A stretch of DNA of 6,718 nucleotides from NCBI GenBank assembly GCA_030064795.1, contig JASJEI010000374.1, positions 1 to 6,718 on the forward strand, written 5' to 3'. Below the pieces are notes generated by a model that made no database searches, was not told where the DNA came from, and worked only from the letters and a program-made list of their open reading frames with translations. The position numbers and the translations under genes were made by a program. Shown in pieces: positions 1 through 6,598 of the stretch. The stretch comes from Pleurocapsa sp. MO_226.B13. Lineage in GTDB: Bacteria > Cyanobacteriota > Cyanobacteriia > Cyanobacteriales > Xenococcaceae. Position 1 is the first letter of the stretch. Every line of letters begins with the position of its first letter.

Positions 1-900
1 GCCCATAGTTCGCCCCATGTAGTGGCGCAACTCACCCCAAGGTGTCAGGGGAGCAAGATCCATTGGCGACAATGGATCTTGCACCGTAATCGAGCGATTC
101 GGAGTCGGTCGGATGTCACATAACTTTACCCTGGGTTCGTTAGGCTTGAGGCGATTAATTTTGGTAGCAATTTTTTTAGCTTCACGAATTTCTTGATGTT
201 GCAGCAAAAAATAACCCAACTCCATTTGAGGTTGTAAATCATTGGGGCGATTAGCCCCTTCGAGCAGTAATTGATGCCAAGTTGCTAAGGCATCGCTACT
301 ACGAGCCAATCGCCACTCAACAACTTTCTGACTACAATACAATCGCCACAATCCCCATAACAATGCTAAGTGAGCCACCAGAACCAACTTAGCGTAGGGA
401 GCAATAGCAAAATTGTAAATTTGTACCCAGTCTCCAGATCTAGAAAGAGCCGACCATAGAGGATAGAGGATAAGAGCATAAATTGACTGCATACAGGCAA
501 ACCAATAAAGCACTTCAGCAATAATTCGTTTGCGAATACGAGGAATCAAAAGAATTGGTATCAATCCCAAGCAGATTGAGAGCAGATTCCCAGCAAAGAC
601 AATCCACCAATATTCAACTGTACTAAAATTTCCTGACGGAATAATATAACCCGAAAAGAATAGCCAGCGAAAGGTGGTTACTGTTCCTCCCACTTGCCAA
701 GTAGCTAGGCTATGACCTATTTCATGAAGCAGAACACCAAGGGGTATTAAGATAAAAATAGCCGACTGTTGTGCTAGCTGCCGATCTGATTCGGTGACTT
801 GGGCATCCCAAAATTGTGACCAATTCTGAGATATTTGCCAAATAGTGTTGATGCAAATCAGAATTGGAAATAGAGAAATAAGCCCGTAGGAGTCTGTCAT
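1..900 (-). CDS. M50-type membrane zinc metalloprotease-like protein, partial (C-terminus off left edge)
   Basis: An uninterrupted 300-codon frame begins with ATG at 900 and leaves the window at base 1, so the C-terminus is missing. The start is firm: a TAG stop (901-903) abuts the ATG, and the next Met (137) lies beyond the active-site motif. No clear ribosome binding site precedes it. Residues 59-63 read HEIGH, the HExxH zinc-binding and catalytic motif, at the end of a hydrophobic stretch (46-58), as in intramembrane site-2-protease-like (M50) peptidases. Other hydrophobic segments lie near 3-20, 95-118, 126-150 and 164-187. The segment FAGNLLSICLG (102-112) resembles the second M50 core helix, but no LDG-type third-ligand motif follows it. 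D157 in SRSGDW is a possible substitute. Residues 200-258 are charged and helical, reminiscent of a TPR-like cytoplasmic domain. The gene lies 149 bp downstream of mtnA on the same strand, so cotranscription is possible but unproven. Membrane location and protease class are fairly sure; the substrate is unknown. Confidence 0.82.
   Translation of the reverse strand, partial: MTDSYGLISLFPILICINTIWQISQNWSQFWDAQVTESDRQLAQQSAIFILIPLGVLLHEIGHSLATWQVGGTVTTFRWLFFSGYIIPSGNFSTVEYWWIVFAGNLLSICLGLIPILLIPRIRKRIIAEVLYWFACMQSIYALILYPLWSALSRSGDWVQIYNFAIAPYAKLVLVAHLALLWGLWRLYCSQKVVEWRLARSSDALATWHQLLLEGANRPNDLQPQMELGYFLLQHQEIREAKKIATKINRLKPNEPRVKLCDIRPTPNRSITVQDPLSPMDLAPLTPWGELRHYMGRTMG
53..82. repeat. Perfect 13-4-13 inverted repeat inside the M50-like gene
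   Basis: GCAAGATCCATTG (53-65) is followed by the four bases GCGA (66-69) and then by its exact reverse complement CAATGGATCTTGC (70-82). The flanking bases (A52 and A83) do not pair, so the stem is exactly 13 bp. It lies within codons 273-283 of the M50-like frame (residues VQDPLSPMDLA) and keeps that frame open. Read on the plus strand the loop is GCGA, a GNRA-type tetraloop. Neither side is followed by a T-tract, so it does not look like an intrinsic terminator. It could be a small palindromic repeat inserted in frame, or a selected mRNA or DNA hairpin. Confidence 0.85.
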
Positions 901-2960: not shown

Positions 2961-3548
2961 TTAGTTGGTTTTTATATGTTCTATGGCTGCGAGTAAAGCA
3001 TCGAGCATCACTGCAAAACTATCATCCGTAGAACGAGGTAAAGTTAATAATCCAGACCGTTCTAAGCTGATAAAGCCGAAAATAGCAGAATTAACCATTC
3101 GCATGATATCAATTAATTTAGTTTTACTTAAACTTTGAGAATCTAAAAGAGTTTTAAATAAACCCTGAGATGCTTGAATTATCGCAGCCGAGTCTGGATC
3201 GTCTGGCTGGAGTTGAAACTGCATCATTACTTGAAATAGTCCAGGATGCAACCTGGCAAAATCTCGACTGGTAAATCCTCCAGCCTTTAATAAAGCGCGG
3301 GGTTCTTTTATACCAGCAGTTTTAGATCTGAGTTCGGCAAACAAAAGTTCGTAAATCTTTAACGCCACTACTTTGTTTAATTCTGTATTTCCTTGGAGAT
3401 GTTTATAAATTGCAGGAGGTTTGATACCTAATTCTCTTGCCACGCGGTTTACACCAAGGGCAGATGCACCCTCTTTTTCGATACAGGCGATCGCAGCATT
3501 AATTACGTCTTGTCTGGTTAAGGAGTTTTCTTTAGTCGGACGACCCAT
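2961..3548 (-). CDS. TetR/AcrR-family transcriptional repressor with WHG-type C-terminal domain
   Basis: This 195-residue protein has the typical TetR size and layout. The N-terminal domain starts MGRPTKENSLTRQDVINAA and carries the helix-turn-helix at about 33-52 (VARELGIKPPAIYKHLQG), with the Tyr-Lys-His of the recognition helix. The C-terminal ligand and dimerisation domain contains RLHPGLFQVMM (99-109) and FGFISLERSG (157-166), which fit the TetR_C_33/WHG group by pattern. The inducer cannot be read from sequence. It starts 32 bp after the end of the phosphotransferase gene on the same strand, so the two are probably one transcript, starting upstream of 4495. The doubled inverted repeat at 4510-4549, before the divergent amidase, is the natural candidate operator, giving autorepression plus amidase control (inference). 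The ribosome binding site is weak; the start is fixed by the conserved MGRPT opening. A HIP1 octamer lies in the helix-turn-helix coding region. Confidence 0.93.
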   Translation of the reverse strand: MGRPTKENSLTRQDVINAAIACIEKEGASALGVNRVARELGIKPPAIYKHLQGNTELNKVVALKIYELLFAELRSKTAGIKEPRALLKAGGFTSRDFARLHPGLFQVMMQFQLQPDDPDSAAIIQASQGLFKTLLDSQSLSKTKLIDIMRMVNSAIFGFISLERSGLLTLPRSTDDSFAVMLDALLAAIEHIKTN

Positions 3549-3580
3549 TTTTCATTAAACTTTAAGCGTTTATCATTTTG

Positions 3581-4495
3581 TTACCTAGTTTCCGACTCGG
3601 CAACACAACGCAATGTTCTTTCTCCTATTATTGCTTGCCTTGGGTTGTCTATTAAGCCCACATCCAGTAGCGTTACACCAAAATATATTGCCCATCCCTT
3701 CGCTCTTTGTAATGTTGCCTCAGATATATTAGTGTATTCGGCGATCGCCTGTTGTCGGGCATCTCGATTTGGGAAAAGCATCCAAATGGAAGCGAGATCT
3801 GTGGCAATATCGCCAGAGGTAATATCGCCCCAATCAATAATACCCGCGATCGCACCATCCTTAACCAGAATATTGCCTGGATGAAGATCGCCATGAAGCC
3901 ATTTTGCTGGAACGTCTATTGGTGCATCTAAAGCCCGATGCCAGATATTTTTAATTGTTTTAGCGATAGGATCGATCTTACTCTCAAGCCGTTGTATTCG
4001 TTGTTCGATAATATCTGCTCGTTGTTTTAAGGGTACGCCCCGTACTGGATTTGCAGGAGCATTAGCTGGTGGGGGTAGATGTAGCGATCGCAGAAATGAC
4101 CCCAATAACTTTGCCTGATTTGCATTGGGTTGCTCTCGATCCGCAGTTACTCCAGAAACCCAAGGCAAGATACTCCATCGCCAAGGGTAGTTTGCTGTAG
4201 GTTTACCCAGTCTATAAGGAGTTGGTATGGGCATGGTTAATCTATCGGCTATTTGTGGCAACCATGTCTGTTCGTGTTCGATTAGTTTGGCTGCTACTTG
4301 TCTTCGAGGAAGTCTGACACACAGGCGATCGCCTAAGCGAAAGATAACATTATCCCAACCAAAGTCAAGCAGTTGCAGGGGAAGGTTGATTAAATCTGGG
4401 TGTTGTTTTGCTAACAAATCAAAAACTAAGGCTGTATCTATTTCAACTTCTGAAATTGGTGTCCCTGAAGAACCAGATTTTTTATTTAATTCCAT
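3581..4495 (-). CDS. Aminoglycoside phosphotransferase (APH)-family small-molecule kinase
   Basis: This 304-residue soluble protein has a protein-kinase-like APH fold and should transfer phosphate from a nucleotide to a small-molecule hydroxyl. The N-lobe has WDNVIFRLGDRLCVRLPRR (47-65), where the usual nucleotide-binding strand carries Arg, followed by the helix with E73/E75 (LIEHEQTWLP). A hinge-like segment WRWSILPWVSG lies at 105-115. The C-lobe holds the Brenner motif WLHGDLHPGNILV (199-211), with catalytic Asp203 and Asn208, and the metal-binding IIDWGD (219-224, Asp221). All key residues are present, so the enzyme is probably active. Chromosomal members of this family have varied or unknown substrates, so antibiotic resistance should not be assumed. 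The start at 4495 precedes the conserved domain by about 20 residues; its ribosome binding site is weak. It is the first gene of a probable operon with tetR (32-bp gap), divergent from the amidase. The gene is rich in HIP1 (four copies), suggesting long residence in this genome rather than recent transfer. Confidence 0.9.
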   Translation of the reverse strand: MELNKKSGSSGTPISEVEIDTALVFDLLAKQHPDLINLPLQLLDFGWDNVIFRLGDRLCVRLPRRQVAAKLIEHEQTWLPQIADRLTMPIPTPYRLGKPTANYPWRWSILPWVSGVTADREQPNANQAKLLGSFLRSLHLPPPANAPANPVRGVPLKQRADIIEQRIQRLESKIDPIAKTIKNIWHRALDAPIDVPAKWLHGDLHPGNILVKDGAIAGIIDWGDITSGDIATDLASIWMLFPNRDARQQAIAEYTNISEATLQRAKGWAIYFGVTLLDVGLIDNPRQAIIGERTLRCVAESETR

Positions 4496-4509
4496 GTTTA
4501 GCTCTGAAA

Positions 4510-4532
4510 TTTAGTTAATAGCATTAACTAAA
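4510..4532. promoter_or_regulatory. Probable TetR operator, copy 1 (10-bp arms, 3-bp spacer)
   Basis: TTTAGTTAAT (4510-4519) and ATTAACTAAA (4523-4532) are exact reverse complements separated by AGC, a 23-bp near-palindrome of the size bound by TetR-family dimers. It lies in the short divergent spacer between the phosphotransferase-tetR operon and the amidase, close to the expected promoters of both. The adjoining second copy (4533-4549) repeats its 17-bp core. Binding by the TetR protein encoded at 2961-3548 is inferred from position. Confidence 0.65.
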
Positions 4533-4549
4533 AGTAAATATAATTAACT
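4533..4549. promoter_or_regulatory. Probable TetR operator, copy 2 (imperfect), overlapping the amidase -10 box
   Basis: AGTAAAT-ATA-ATTAACT repeats the core AGTTAAT-AGC-ATTAACT of copy 1 (4513-4529) with one arm mismatch and a different spacer. It is offset by exactly 20 bp, about two helical turns, so two bound dimers would lie on the same face of the DNA. It covers the TATAAT at 4539-4544, so occupancy should block RNA polymerase at the amidase promoter. A match of this length at such a phased distance argues against chance, though the region is AT-rich. Confidence 0.55.
4539..4544 (+). promoter_or_regulatory. -10 element (TATAAT) of the amidase promoter
   Basis: A perfect TATAAT consensus sits 37 bases upstream of the preferred amidase ATG (4582), which places transcription start near 4551 and leaves a leader of about 30 bases carrying the GAGG ribosome binding site. 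No good -35 hexamer lies 16-18 bp upstream (the positions fall inside operator copy 1), so the promoter may be weak or activator-dependent. On the opposite strand the same bases offer TATATT (4542-4537), and TTGAGT (4552-4547) with GTTAAT (4528-4523) is a weak alternative promoter for the phosphotransferase operon. Confidence 0.5.
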
Positions 4550-4581
4550 CAATCAAATCTATTTTATTGAGGATGCTAGCG

Positions 4582-6051
4582 ATGGAGATAGTGTTTGCTA
4601 CTGCCAGTCAACTGGCGCAGATGATTAGAGATAAAGAAGTTTCGGCGTTAGAAGTTGTGAATGCTTATTTGGAACAGATTGAAAAACATAACGGAAAGAT
4701 AAATGCAATCGCCACCTTAAATAGAGAAGAAGCTAAAACAAGAGCAATAGAAGCAGATGAAGCTTTAGCCAGAGGAGAAAACTGGGGCGCGTTACATGGC
4801 GTACCGATTACCATTAAAGATGCTTTAGAAACTAAGGGGTTGCGCTCTACTTGTAACTATAAACCTTTAACTAACTATATCCCCCAACAAGATGCGATCG
4901 CGGTAGAAAGATTGCGTTCGGCAGGAGCAATTATTATGGCTAAAACTAACTGTGCCAGTTTAGCGGGAGATTATCAAACTCATGGTGCGGTGTTTGCCAG
5001 AGCCAATAATCCTTGGAATCTCGATTATACTCCAGGGGGAAGCACTGGTGGAGGTGCAGCAGCAGTAGCTGCTGGTTTGTCGCCTTTAGAATTGGGGAGT
5101 GATGGCGGTGGTTCGATTAGACAACCCGCTCATTGCTGCGGAATTTTTGGTTTTAAGCCAACAGATAGATTAGTTCCTACTTTGGGACATCTTCCCGAAC
5201 TTCCTGGCTATCCTAAAAGTATCCGTCATGTCTTAACTATTGGTGCTTTAGCTCGTTGTGTGGAGGATTTAAAACTTTGTCTATCTTTAATTGCAGGAGC
5301 AGATTCCAGACAACCAGAAATACCGCCAGTAACTTTAAACACTCCAGCAAAAAAATCCTTATCATCTTTACGTATTGCTTGGACTTCTGAATTGGGAAAT
5401 CTGAAAGTAGATCCTGAAATTAGTTCTACCTTAAGCAATTTTGTGACTAGACTTACTGAGGCTGGATGCCATGTAGAACAACAAATCCCTCAAGAATTCG
5501 ATTTTGATACTGCTTGGGAAACCTATGGCGAGGTATATGCATCAGAGCTATTGACCTCCGAACCAGTTTTTACCTGGGATAACATTTCATTTACCTTAAA
5601 ACTCAATTTCTCTAAAATTCAAGTGGCTCGTCAGTATCGAAATAGTCCGATAGAACGGGGATTTCTCAAAGCTTTTCCTGTCAATTTCTCCAAATATATG
5701 CAGAGTTTAACCAAACGCGATTGCGCCATCGCTCAGATGGATGATTTTTTAGCTGACTGGGATGCTTATCTTTGTCCTGTATCAACAATTACAGCTTTTC
5801 CCCATCAACCCAAAGGAAAACCCATAGAAGTCAATGGCATCAAGCTTCCTTACATTACAGCCTGTGGCGGTTATGCCATTTTGTTTAATTTTACGGGACA
5901 TCCCGTAGTAGTGATTCCTATTGGTCGTAGTCAGTCAGGATTACCCATAGGAATACAGATAGTGGGAAAAAGGTGGCAAGATTTAGAGTTATTGGCGATC
6001 GCAGAAAAGATTAATGAAATAGCTTGCGATCTTCAACATCCATCTTTGTAA
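4582..6051 (+). CDS. Amidase-signature family hydrolase
   Basis: This 489-residue cytoplasmic enzyme hydrolyses a carboxamide to acid plus ammonia or amine, using the Ser-cisSer-Lys triad. Visible elements are PITIKDALET with catalytic Lys79; the signature GGSTGGGAAAVAAG, where Ser154 is the cis-Ser and a Thr replaces the usual second Ser; and GSDGGGSIRQPAHCCGIFGF with nucleophile Ser178. The C-terminus has the usual NFTGHPVVVIPIG and LPIGIQIVGKRWQDLELL segments, so the protein is complete. I chose ATG 4582 because GAGG (4569-4572) lies 9 bases before it. In-frame TTG 4567 and ATG 4573 would overlap that site and add only five or three residues. It is less likely to be GatA of the tRNA amidotransferase, because no GatB or GatC is nearby and it stands beside a TetR-controlled unit. 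It resembles general acylamidases, and the substrate is unknown. It is probably repressed through the doubled inverted repeat upstream. The gene has just two HIP1 octamers. Confidence 0.93.
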   Translation: MEIVFATASQLAQMIRDKEVSALEVVNAYLEQIEKHNGKINAIATLNREEAKTRAIEADEALARGENWGALHGVPITIKDALETKGLRSTCNYKPLTNYIPQQDAIAVERLRSAGAIIMAKTNCASLAGDYQTHGAVFARANNPWNLDYTPGGSTGGGAAAVAAGLSPLELGSDGGGSIRQPAHCCGIFGFKPTDRLVPTLGHLPELPGYPKSIRHVLTIGALARCVEDLKLCLSLIAGADSRQPEIPPVTLNTPAKKSLSSLRIAWTSELGNLKVDPEISSTLSNFVTRLTEAGCHVEQQIPQEFDFDTAWETYGEVYASELLTSEPVFTWDNISFTLKLNFSKIQVARQYRNSPIERGFLKAFPVNFSKYMQSLTKRDCAIAQMDDFLADWDAYLCPVSTITAFPHQPKGKPIEVNGIKLPYITACGGYAILFNFTGHPVVVIPIGRSQSGLPIGIQIVGKRWQDLELLAIAEKINEIACDLQHPSL

Positions 6052-6130: not shown

Positions 6131-6598
6131 GTGAATAAAATCCCCAAAGCTTTTAAAAGCAATCAGCAGTTTGAGAATAGCTTCGCTTATCGCCAGACAA
6201 GCATATTGTCTCAACTGCCTCGTTTACCGATTAATTCTAGTTCTGAATTAGGGTGGAAAACTATTCAGATTACGCATTATCGTCAACCAGCTTTCGAGAT
6301 TCCCGAACATAATTTAGATTGTCATGGAATTTATCTTAATGCAGGTAAAACCGTCAGGCTAAAGCAGAAAATTGCAGGTAAAACGATTACATCTAATTCT
6401 GTTCCAGAAGACTTTGGTATTTATCCCGCACAAATTAGTCAGTCATTTGCTTGGAACTCAGAAGCAGACTTTTTACTGATTTATTTGGAAGCCGATTTAA
6501 TAACTAAGCTGGGCTACGAACTTTATCAAAGCAATAGTGTAGAACTAATACCTCAGATTGAAACTTCCTTCGATCCTTTGATTCAACAGATTCAGTAG
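6131..6598 (+). pseudogene. AraC-family regulator, N-terminal sensor domain only (HTH lost)
   Basis: A 155-codon frame opens with GTG at 6131 and ends at TAG 6596-6598. No other usual start lies between it and the upstream in-frame TGA at 6065-6067. Its sequence follows the N-terminal cupin-like sensing domain of a large group of cyanobacterial AraC regulators: LGWKTIQITHYRQPAFEIPEH (40-60), YLNAGKTVRLKQKIAGK (68-84), a GIYPAQ turn near 97, and the domain end ELIPQIETSFDPLIQQI. Intact members run to nearly 300 residues and continue with two AraC helix-turn-helix motifs. Here the frame stops after IQQIQ, and no HTH coding is found in any frame of the remaining 120 bases. It is therefore a truncated remnant, although a ligand-binding fragment could still be made. 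It follows the amidase by 79 bp on the same strand and may once have regulated a neighbouring gene. Confidence 0.68.

What the first reader, a model, noticed from the sequence alone, without database searches (positions are those of the whole stretch)
4510..4549. Two phased copies of an operator-like inverted repeat between the amidase and the kinase-tetR operon
The core AGTTAAT-AGC-ATTAACT is repeated as AGTAAAT-ATA-ATTAACT exactly 20 bp downstream. The first copy extends to 10-bp perfect arms. The second covers a perfect TATAAT for the amidase. TetR-family dimers are known to bind such palindromes, sometimes as two dimers on one operator, and a TetR gene lies in the divergent operon. That this TetR binds here is inference.
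Basis: partly seen in the sequence, partly recalled or inferred. Interest (0 to 1): 0.72.

Follow-up and report, generated by a model that had tools for sequence, protein, structure and literature searches.

The report
Twin TetR operator between divergent genes
Two matching DNA palindromes between an amidase gene and a repressor operon are very probably the landing sites of that repressor, kept with the same 20-letter spacing in many cyanobacteria, which makes this a well-supported but ordinary kind of gene switch.

Summary
Of 60 cyanobacterial TetR loci, 58 have site 1 upstream of TetR. Of 59 anchored regions (58 loci plus window), 35 also have site 2, 34 of them at exactly 20 bp. In 291 genomes the strict 21-bp palindrome occurs in 25; 24 of those places adjoin this TetR and an amidase, and the exception is a long hairpin. 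A sister TetR clade (7 loci, no amidase found beside them) keeps two palindromes 20 bp apart but reads AGCTAAT instead of AGTTAAT, together with Ser instead of Ala at helix residue 46, which aligns with TetR Thr40. Likely mechanism: two TetR dimers sit side by side on overlapping divergent promoters and repress both the amidase and their own operon, which a kinase gene has joined here. Shown: conservation, genomic uniqueness, co-change of helix and operator. Inferred: binding, repression, start sites, ligand. New member of a known kind.

The parts
4510..4532 (.). Site 1: TTTAGTTAAT-AGC-ATTAACTAAA, main proposed TetR operator; covers the -35/spacer region of the amidase promoter and the putative -10/start of the kinase-tetR promoter
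   Evidence: consensus TTAGTTAAYNNNRTTAACTAA
4533..4549 (.). Site 2: AGTAAAT-ATA-ATTAACT, second proposed operator, 20 bp from site 1
   Evidence: 35 of 59 regions have it
4539..4544 (+). TATAAT, putative amidase -10, inside site 2
   Evidence: this slot is TATAAT in 29 of 35 two-site regions and in 4 of 19 single-site regions, TATGAT in 6 of those 19
4551..4556 (-). TTGATT, putative -35 of the kinase-tetR promoter (TTGATA in many relatives, TTGACA in 6 of 7 sister-clade loci)
   Evidence: inference
4527..4532 (-). TTTAGT, putative -10 of the kinase-tetR promoter, 18 nt from the -35, at the edge of site 1
   Evidence: inference
2961..3548 (-). TetR-family regulator (TetR_N plus TetR_C_33), 195 aa
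   Evidence: model pLDDT 89.9, best fold match 1zk8
3399..3425 (-). Codons of TetR residues 42-50, recognition helix IKPPAIYKH; Ala46 aligns with TetR Thr40
3581..4495 (-). APH-fold phosphotransferase (kinase) placed between operator and tetR; of 60 related loci only L003 has it there
4582..6051 (+). Amidase-signature amidase, divergent proposed target gene (ORF opens at TTG 4567; relatives suggest ATG 4582)

Best explanation
The two palindromes are a tandem operator for the TetR-family protein of the divergent operon. One dimer binds site 1 and another binds site 2, 20 bp away, nearly two helical turns, so on almost the same face of the DNA. Site 2 lies on the amidase -10 and inside the -35/-10 spacer of the tetR-side promoter; site 1 lies on the amidase -35/spacer region and on the -10/start of the tetR-side promoter. 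Bound TetR would thus shut off both overlapping promoters; an unknown small molecule, perhaps an amidase substrate or product, would release it. In this genome a kinase gene heads the tetR operon and would fall under the same control. Shown by sequence: conservation, uniqueness in genomes, co-change of helix and operator. Inferred: binding, cooperativity, repression rather than activation, start sites, ligand.
For: Site 1 (at most 2 mismatches) within 2.6 kb upstream of TetR in 58 of 60 loci; site 2 in 35 of 59 regions, 34 at 20 bp and one (L033) at 19. Strict palindrome in 25 of 291 genomes (reversed control pattern: 1 of 291), TetR in 34 of 291, 24 of 25 sites beside TetR and amidase (Fisher p 4e-26, relatedness ignored). 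In 24 TetR-bearing genomes, all 12 extra core matches outside G011 were fetched and 10 lie inside mechanical ORFs of 90 aa or more, as background would. Sister TetR clade: 7 of 7 loci keep two palindromes 20 bp apart, with half-site AGCTAAY and helix ITPPSIYKH, and no amidase hit in the 4.9-10.9 kb fetched; A and B are sister clades, support 100/99 and 100/98. Residue 46 aligns without gaps with the Thr of QPTLY in TetR; PMC7102968 (passages) names Gln38, Pro39 and Thr40 as playing a major role in recognition specificity. L044, a TetR without an amidase hit in 20.6 kb, keeps a 2-mismatch site ending 5 bp before its start.
Against: No binding or expression data. Site 2 is decayed in 21 of 59 regions and fused with site 1 in 3, so two dimers are not always needed. 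Helix-operator covariation rests on one or two evolutionary steps, and one of four half-sites in the sister clade keeps T6. Genome G011 has 18 core-match places, one of them its own operator; 6 of the 17 others were fetched and 3 of those are intergenic. The promoter-like match in the window is no better than shuffles, and the TTGATA element is in place (5 of 6 bases or better) in only 30 of 59 regions. L029, a second TetR copy, has only half of site 1.
Confidence: 0.9

Rival explanations
1. The palindromes are the binding site of another regulator, for example a global one acting on the amidase, and TetR is a bystander.
For: Most TetR loci also carry the amidase (56 of 60 gave an amidase hit), so gene order alone cannot separate the two.
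Against: One strict site per site-bearing genome, and 24 of 25 beside this TetR; sites persist upstream of TetRs without an amidase hit (L044; seven sister-clade loci); the half-site differs together with the TetR helix.
Confidence: 0.04
2. The symmetry is only promoter symmetry: a bidirectional promoter whose -10 reads TATAAT one way and TATATT the other, without a repressor.
For: TATAAT/TATATT overlap inside site 2; such promoters are described as ubiquitous in prokaryotes (PMC12825309, abstract and section list only).
Against: Site 1 is the better conserved element, promoter symmetry does not call for it, and it stays where site 2 decays.
Confidence: 0.03
3. Only site 1 is an operator; site 2 looks palindromic because the promoter and its spacer happen to match.
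For: Single-site regions are common, 19 of 59; the inner half of site 2 carries a non-consensus G at position 5 in 25 of 34 regions, and in the window an A.
Against: 34 of 35 second sites keep 20 bp exactly; the sister clade, with no amidase found and so no need of an amidase -10, also keeps site 2 at 20 bp in 7 of 7; two remoter relatives have a pair (L158, L159, printed; 19 bp by my count).
Confidence: 0.15

Closest known systems
Tn10/class D TetR and tetO
   Same: Autoregulated TetR between overlapping divergent promoters with two operators (layout recalled); ungapped alignment through the helix-turn-helix, similar fold.
   Different: Core AGTTAAT-N3-ATTAACT rather than tetO (recalled); enzyme genes at the operator (amidase; kinase or methyltransferase) instead of an efflux pump; C-terminal domain TetR_C_33.
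QacR-type operators with two dimers
   Same: Two TetR-family dimers per regulatory region proposed.
   Different: Here two adjacent palindromes 20 bp apart, not two overlapping dimers on one palindrome (QacR recalled; only its title in a reference list was seen).
Bidirectional promoters of E. coli (PMC12825309, abstract only)
   Same: Opposed -10-like hexamers overlap in site 2.
   Different: Here the symmetry extends to a second palindrome that follows the TetR gene.

Membership tests
TetR family of transcriptional regulators | TetR_N helix-turn-helix above the Pfam cut-off | tested here: met
   29.1 bits against a cut-off of 24; TetR_C_33 57.5 against 26.8
TetR family of transcriptional regulators | All-helical TetR fold | tested here: met
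   Model pLDDT 89.9; 1zk8_A TM 0.82 and many TetR(D) chains
TetR-autoregulated divergon | Regulator and target divergent around a shared operator-like palindrome | tested here: met
   Window; 56 of 60 loci gave an amidase hit, one only a 75-residue piece
TetR-autoregulated divergon | Palindrome conserved with the regulator | tested here: met
   24 of 25 strict sites in 291 genomes
TetR-autoregulated divergon | Repressor binds the operator and is released by a ligand | not testable with these tools
   No binding, expression or ligand data
Two-dimer tandem operator | Two palindromes at fixed phase | tested here: met
   34 of 35 two-site regions at 20 bp; 7 of 7 sister-clade loci at 20 bp; but 24 of 59 regions lack a separate second site
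Two-dimer tandem operator | Cooperative binding of two dimers | not testable with these tools
   Needs footprint or gel shift
Bidirectional promoter | Transcription in both directions from shared elements | tested here: inconclusive
   Hexamers overlap in sequence, promoter-like match no better than shuffles; no start-site data

The most novel reading that the evidence does not exclude
The twin operator is older than the divergent amidase promoter. An ancestral cyanobacterial TetR used two palindromes about 20 bp apart inside its own promoter for autorepression (still so in the sister clade, and in L158 with a co-directional amidase frame after TetR); in one branch an amidase promoter pointing the other way arose within site 2, so one element became -10 and operator at once. 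The two sister branches differ by a one-residue, one-base-pair change (Ala46 with T6, Ser46 with C6), leaving natural repressors with different operators in the same cell (both paralogues in G164, G252, G199 and G022).
Probability: 0.45. Interest if true: 0.55.

Novelty: new member of a known kind. Interest (0 to 1): 0.42.

Why it matters
It gives an uncharacterised TetR lineage, found in many cyanobacterial families, a precise candidate operator, a local regulon (about one address per genome) and a target enzyme. The two sister clades with different half-sites offer a test of how a TetR recognition helix changes specificity, and candidate repressor-operator parts for cyanobacterial genetics. 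Paper searches did not list a description of this system; only capped listings were seen, and most subscription papers are not held.

Tried and rejected
Own-genome motif scan: no genome is held for the window, so relatives' genomes were used. Larger regulon: of 18 core sites in 17 fetched loci away from TetR, 13 lie inside mechanical ORFs of 90 aa or more; the reversed control pattern gave 15 strand matches against 75 in the 24 genomes, and the 12 extra places outside G011 amount to 19 strand matches against 11 control ones, near background. Rejected, except that G011 (21 against 4 control) stays unexplained. Terminator or structured RNA: no terminator-like site at 4400-4700, no Rfam match at gathering score in the window. 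Remote TetRs L157 and L183-L186 (IQPPS[LM]YNH): no comparable palindrome in 220 bp upstream, outside the system. The single strict site without TetR (G044, L098) lies in a perfect 17-nt-arm, 5-nt-loop hairpin, read by eye from the sequence printed; the automatic arm count assumed a 3-nt loop and returned 0. Remembered, not verified: TetR T40A changes recognition of tetO base pair 6 from GC to AT (Hillen group, 1988); searches did not list it and look-up 66 (a related paper of 1991) is not held.

Full report
What is there. The window is from a cyanobacterium close to Pleurocapsales: its TetR falls with proteins of Hyellaceae, Myxosarcina and Xenococcaceae. Between an APH-fold kinase plus TetR operon on the minus strand and an amidase on the plus strand lies TTTAGTTAAT-AGC-ATTAACTAAA (4510-4532), then AGTAAAT-ATA-ATTAACT (4533-4549), 20 bp on, with TATAAT at 4539-4544. 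Chance alone would give perfect arms of 10 bp or more in 0.6% of such spacers, and one promoter-like match is what shuffles give too.

Conservation. A TetR alignment of 38 sequences found 60 loci in genome contigs (one, L051, is labelled Gracilibacteria but its TetR is of the cyanobacterial kind). 58 of 60 have a core match with at most 2 mismatches within 2.6 kb upstream of TetR; L029 and L042 do not. L042 has only 33 nt of contig upstream. L029 is a second copy in Fischerella sp. PCC 9431 that keeps only the half GTTAACTAA and has transposase-like ORFs beside it (judged by eye). 56 of 60 loci gave an amidase hit, one of them (L024) only a 75-residue piece; L010, L029, L042 and L044 gave none. 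With the window, 59 regions could be anchored on site 1: 35 have a second site with at most 2 mismatches, 34 at 20 bp and one (L033) at 19; 2 are intermediate, 19 single, 3 collapsed. In the collapsed ones (L003, L054, L060) about 20 bp are missing and one hybrid palindrome remains. Conservation in the two-site class begins near TTGATA, runs through both palindromes and then fades (24 non-redundant rows). On a TetR tree of 57 rows (quick method) the two-site and single-site states differ by at least 8 changes, or 12 if all other groups are counted against the two-site label, so second sites were gained or lost repeatedly, unless transfer of TetR genes blurs this.

The slot between operator and tetR changes its tenant. 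It holds a kinase in the window and L003, a SAM methyltransferase in L032, L033, L046 and L058 and, by distance only, probably in L047 and L057. In L041 a similar gene precedes TetR while site and amidase lie 2 kb off. In L056 another APH-fold kinase sits on the amidase side. In the cases read, L041 apart, the palindrome stays at the head of both operons.

Uniqueness. In 291 genomes of the class the strict pattern TTAGTTAAYNNNRTTAACTAA occurs in 25, the reversed control in 1, and TetR (E up to 1e-40) in 34. 24 of the 25 sites have TetR and amidase hits within the fetched flanks (in L103 TetR is cut by the contig end). The exception, G044, is a long hairpin without TetR or amidase hit. The 10 TetR genomes without a strict site are: three with the sister TetR only (G040, G155, G266), four whose core has 1-2 mismatches (G021, G022, G215, G288), G020 (variant site near its amidase, L041), G100 (TetR frame broken) and G123 (remote TetR). 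Fisher exact p = 4e-26 without correction for relatedness. In 24 TetR-bearing genomes the looser core gave 75 strand matches against 15 for the reversed control. All 12 extra places outside G011 were fetched; 10 lie in ORFs. G011 (Calothrix parasitica NIES-267) has 18 places including its own locus; of the 6 extras fetched (of 17), 3 are intergenic: unexplained.

Covariation. A sister clade B (L153, L154, L160, L162-L165; monophyletic, 100/98, sister to A in a tree of 32 rows) carries helix ITPPSIYKH instead of IKPPAIYKH. No amidase hit was found in the 4.9-10.9 kb fetched around 7 of 7; in L153 and L154 the next gene is an alpha/beta-hydrolase-like frame (Pfam run on L153 only). All 7 have AGCTAAYACYATTCGCTTTTAGTRAATAGTRYTAGCTA, two palindromes 20 bp apart, preceded by TTGACA in 6; the pattern was drawn from these loci, and with up to 2 mismatches it occurs in no other of the 291 genomes. 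Three of its four half-sites carry C at position 6 from the dyad; the fourth is AGTAAAT or AGTGAAT. A-type site 1 has T6 in 118 of 118 half-sites and G7 in 117 of 118. L159 (IRPPSIYKH) has AGCTAAT-type halves (one of its four halves is divergent) and L158 (IQPPSIYNH) has ACTAAT halves, both as pairs (19 bp by my count). L158 also has an amidase-like frame after TetR on the same strand, so a TetR-amidase link may be older than the divergent layout. Ala46 thus goes with T6, Ser46 with C6, Lys49 with G7 and Asn49 with A7; each rests on one or few evolutionary events, and the last on one locus. Ala46 aligns without gaps with Thr of QPTLY in TetR; PMC7102968 (passages) says Thr40 contacts bases and that Gln38, Pro39 and Thr40 play a major role in recognition specificity. 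That T40A moves base pair 6 from GC to AT is recalled, not found here.

Mechanism. In two-site regions TATAAT fills the amidase -10 slot in 29 of 35; in single-site regions the same slot is TATAAT in 4 and TATGAT in 6 of 19, which fits an amidase -10 that does not depend on site 2. On the tetR side TTGATA (TTGACA in 6 of 7 B loci) lies 18 nt before TTTAGT at the edge of site 1; this reading is weaker, with at least 5 of 6 TTGATA bases in that exact place in 30 of 59 regions. Two dimers would then cover both promoters. Since B loci keep the pair without an amidase and L158 keeps one without a divergent amidase, the layout probably served autoregulation first.

Verdict. What remains is experiment: binding, cooperativity, repression and ligand.

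Noticed in passing
window 53-82: Perfect 13-bp-arm inverted repeat GCAAGATCCATTG-GCGA-CAATGGATCTTGC inside an open M50B-like peptidase frame (1-900, minus; Pfam just below its cut-off); the longest-armed palindrome in the window, no Rfam match.
   Followed up: partly
window 6131-6598: 155-aa frame after the amidase without any Pfam match; by eye it resembles the N-terminal part of an AraC-type regulator, perhaps truncated.
   Followed up: partly
G011 (Calothrix parasitica NIES-267), loci L093-L097: 21 strand matches (18 places) of AGTTAATNNNRTTAACT against 0-6 in the other 23 genomes; some intergenic. A larger regulon or a dispersed repeat is open.
   Followed up: partly
L003, L054, L060: One operator unit of about 20 bp missing, leaving one hybrid palindrome, as expected of slippage between direct repeats.
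   Followed up: partly
L158 (G226), 3397-4786: Amidase-like hits (41% over 195 residues, plus a C-terminal piece) on the same strand after a remote TetR whose upstream pair reads ACTAAT.
   Followed up: partly
L001, L003, L014, L020, L021, L025: A second amidase hit lies beyond the first, suggesting repeated amidase duplication at this locus.
   Followed up: no
L161 (G100): TetR match without a start and with a TAG inside, a possible decaying copy.
   Followed up: no
window, whole: 12 copies of GCGATCGC, the cyanobacterial HIP1 octamer (name recalled; count).
   Followed up: no
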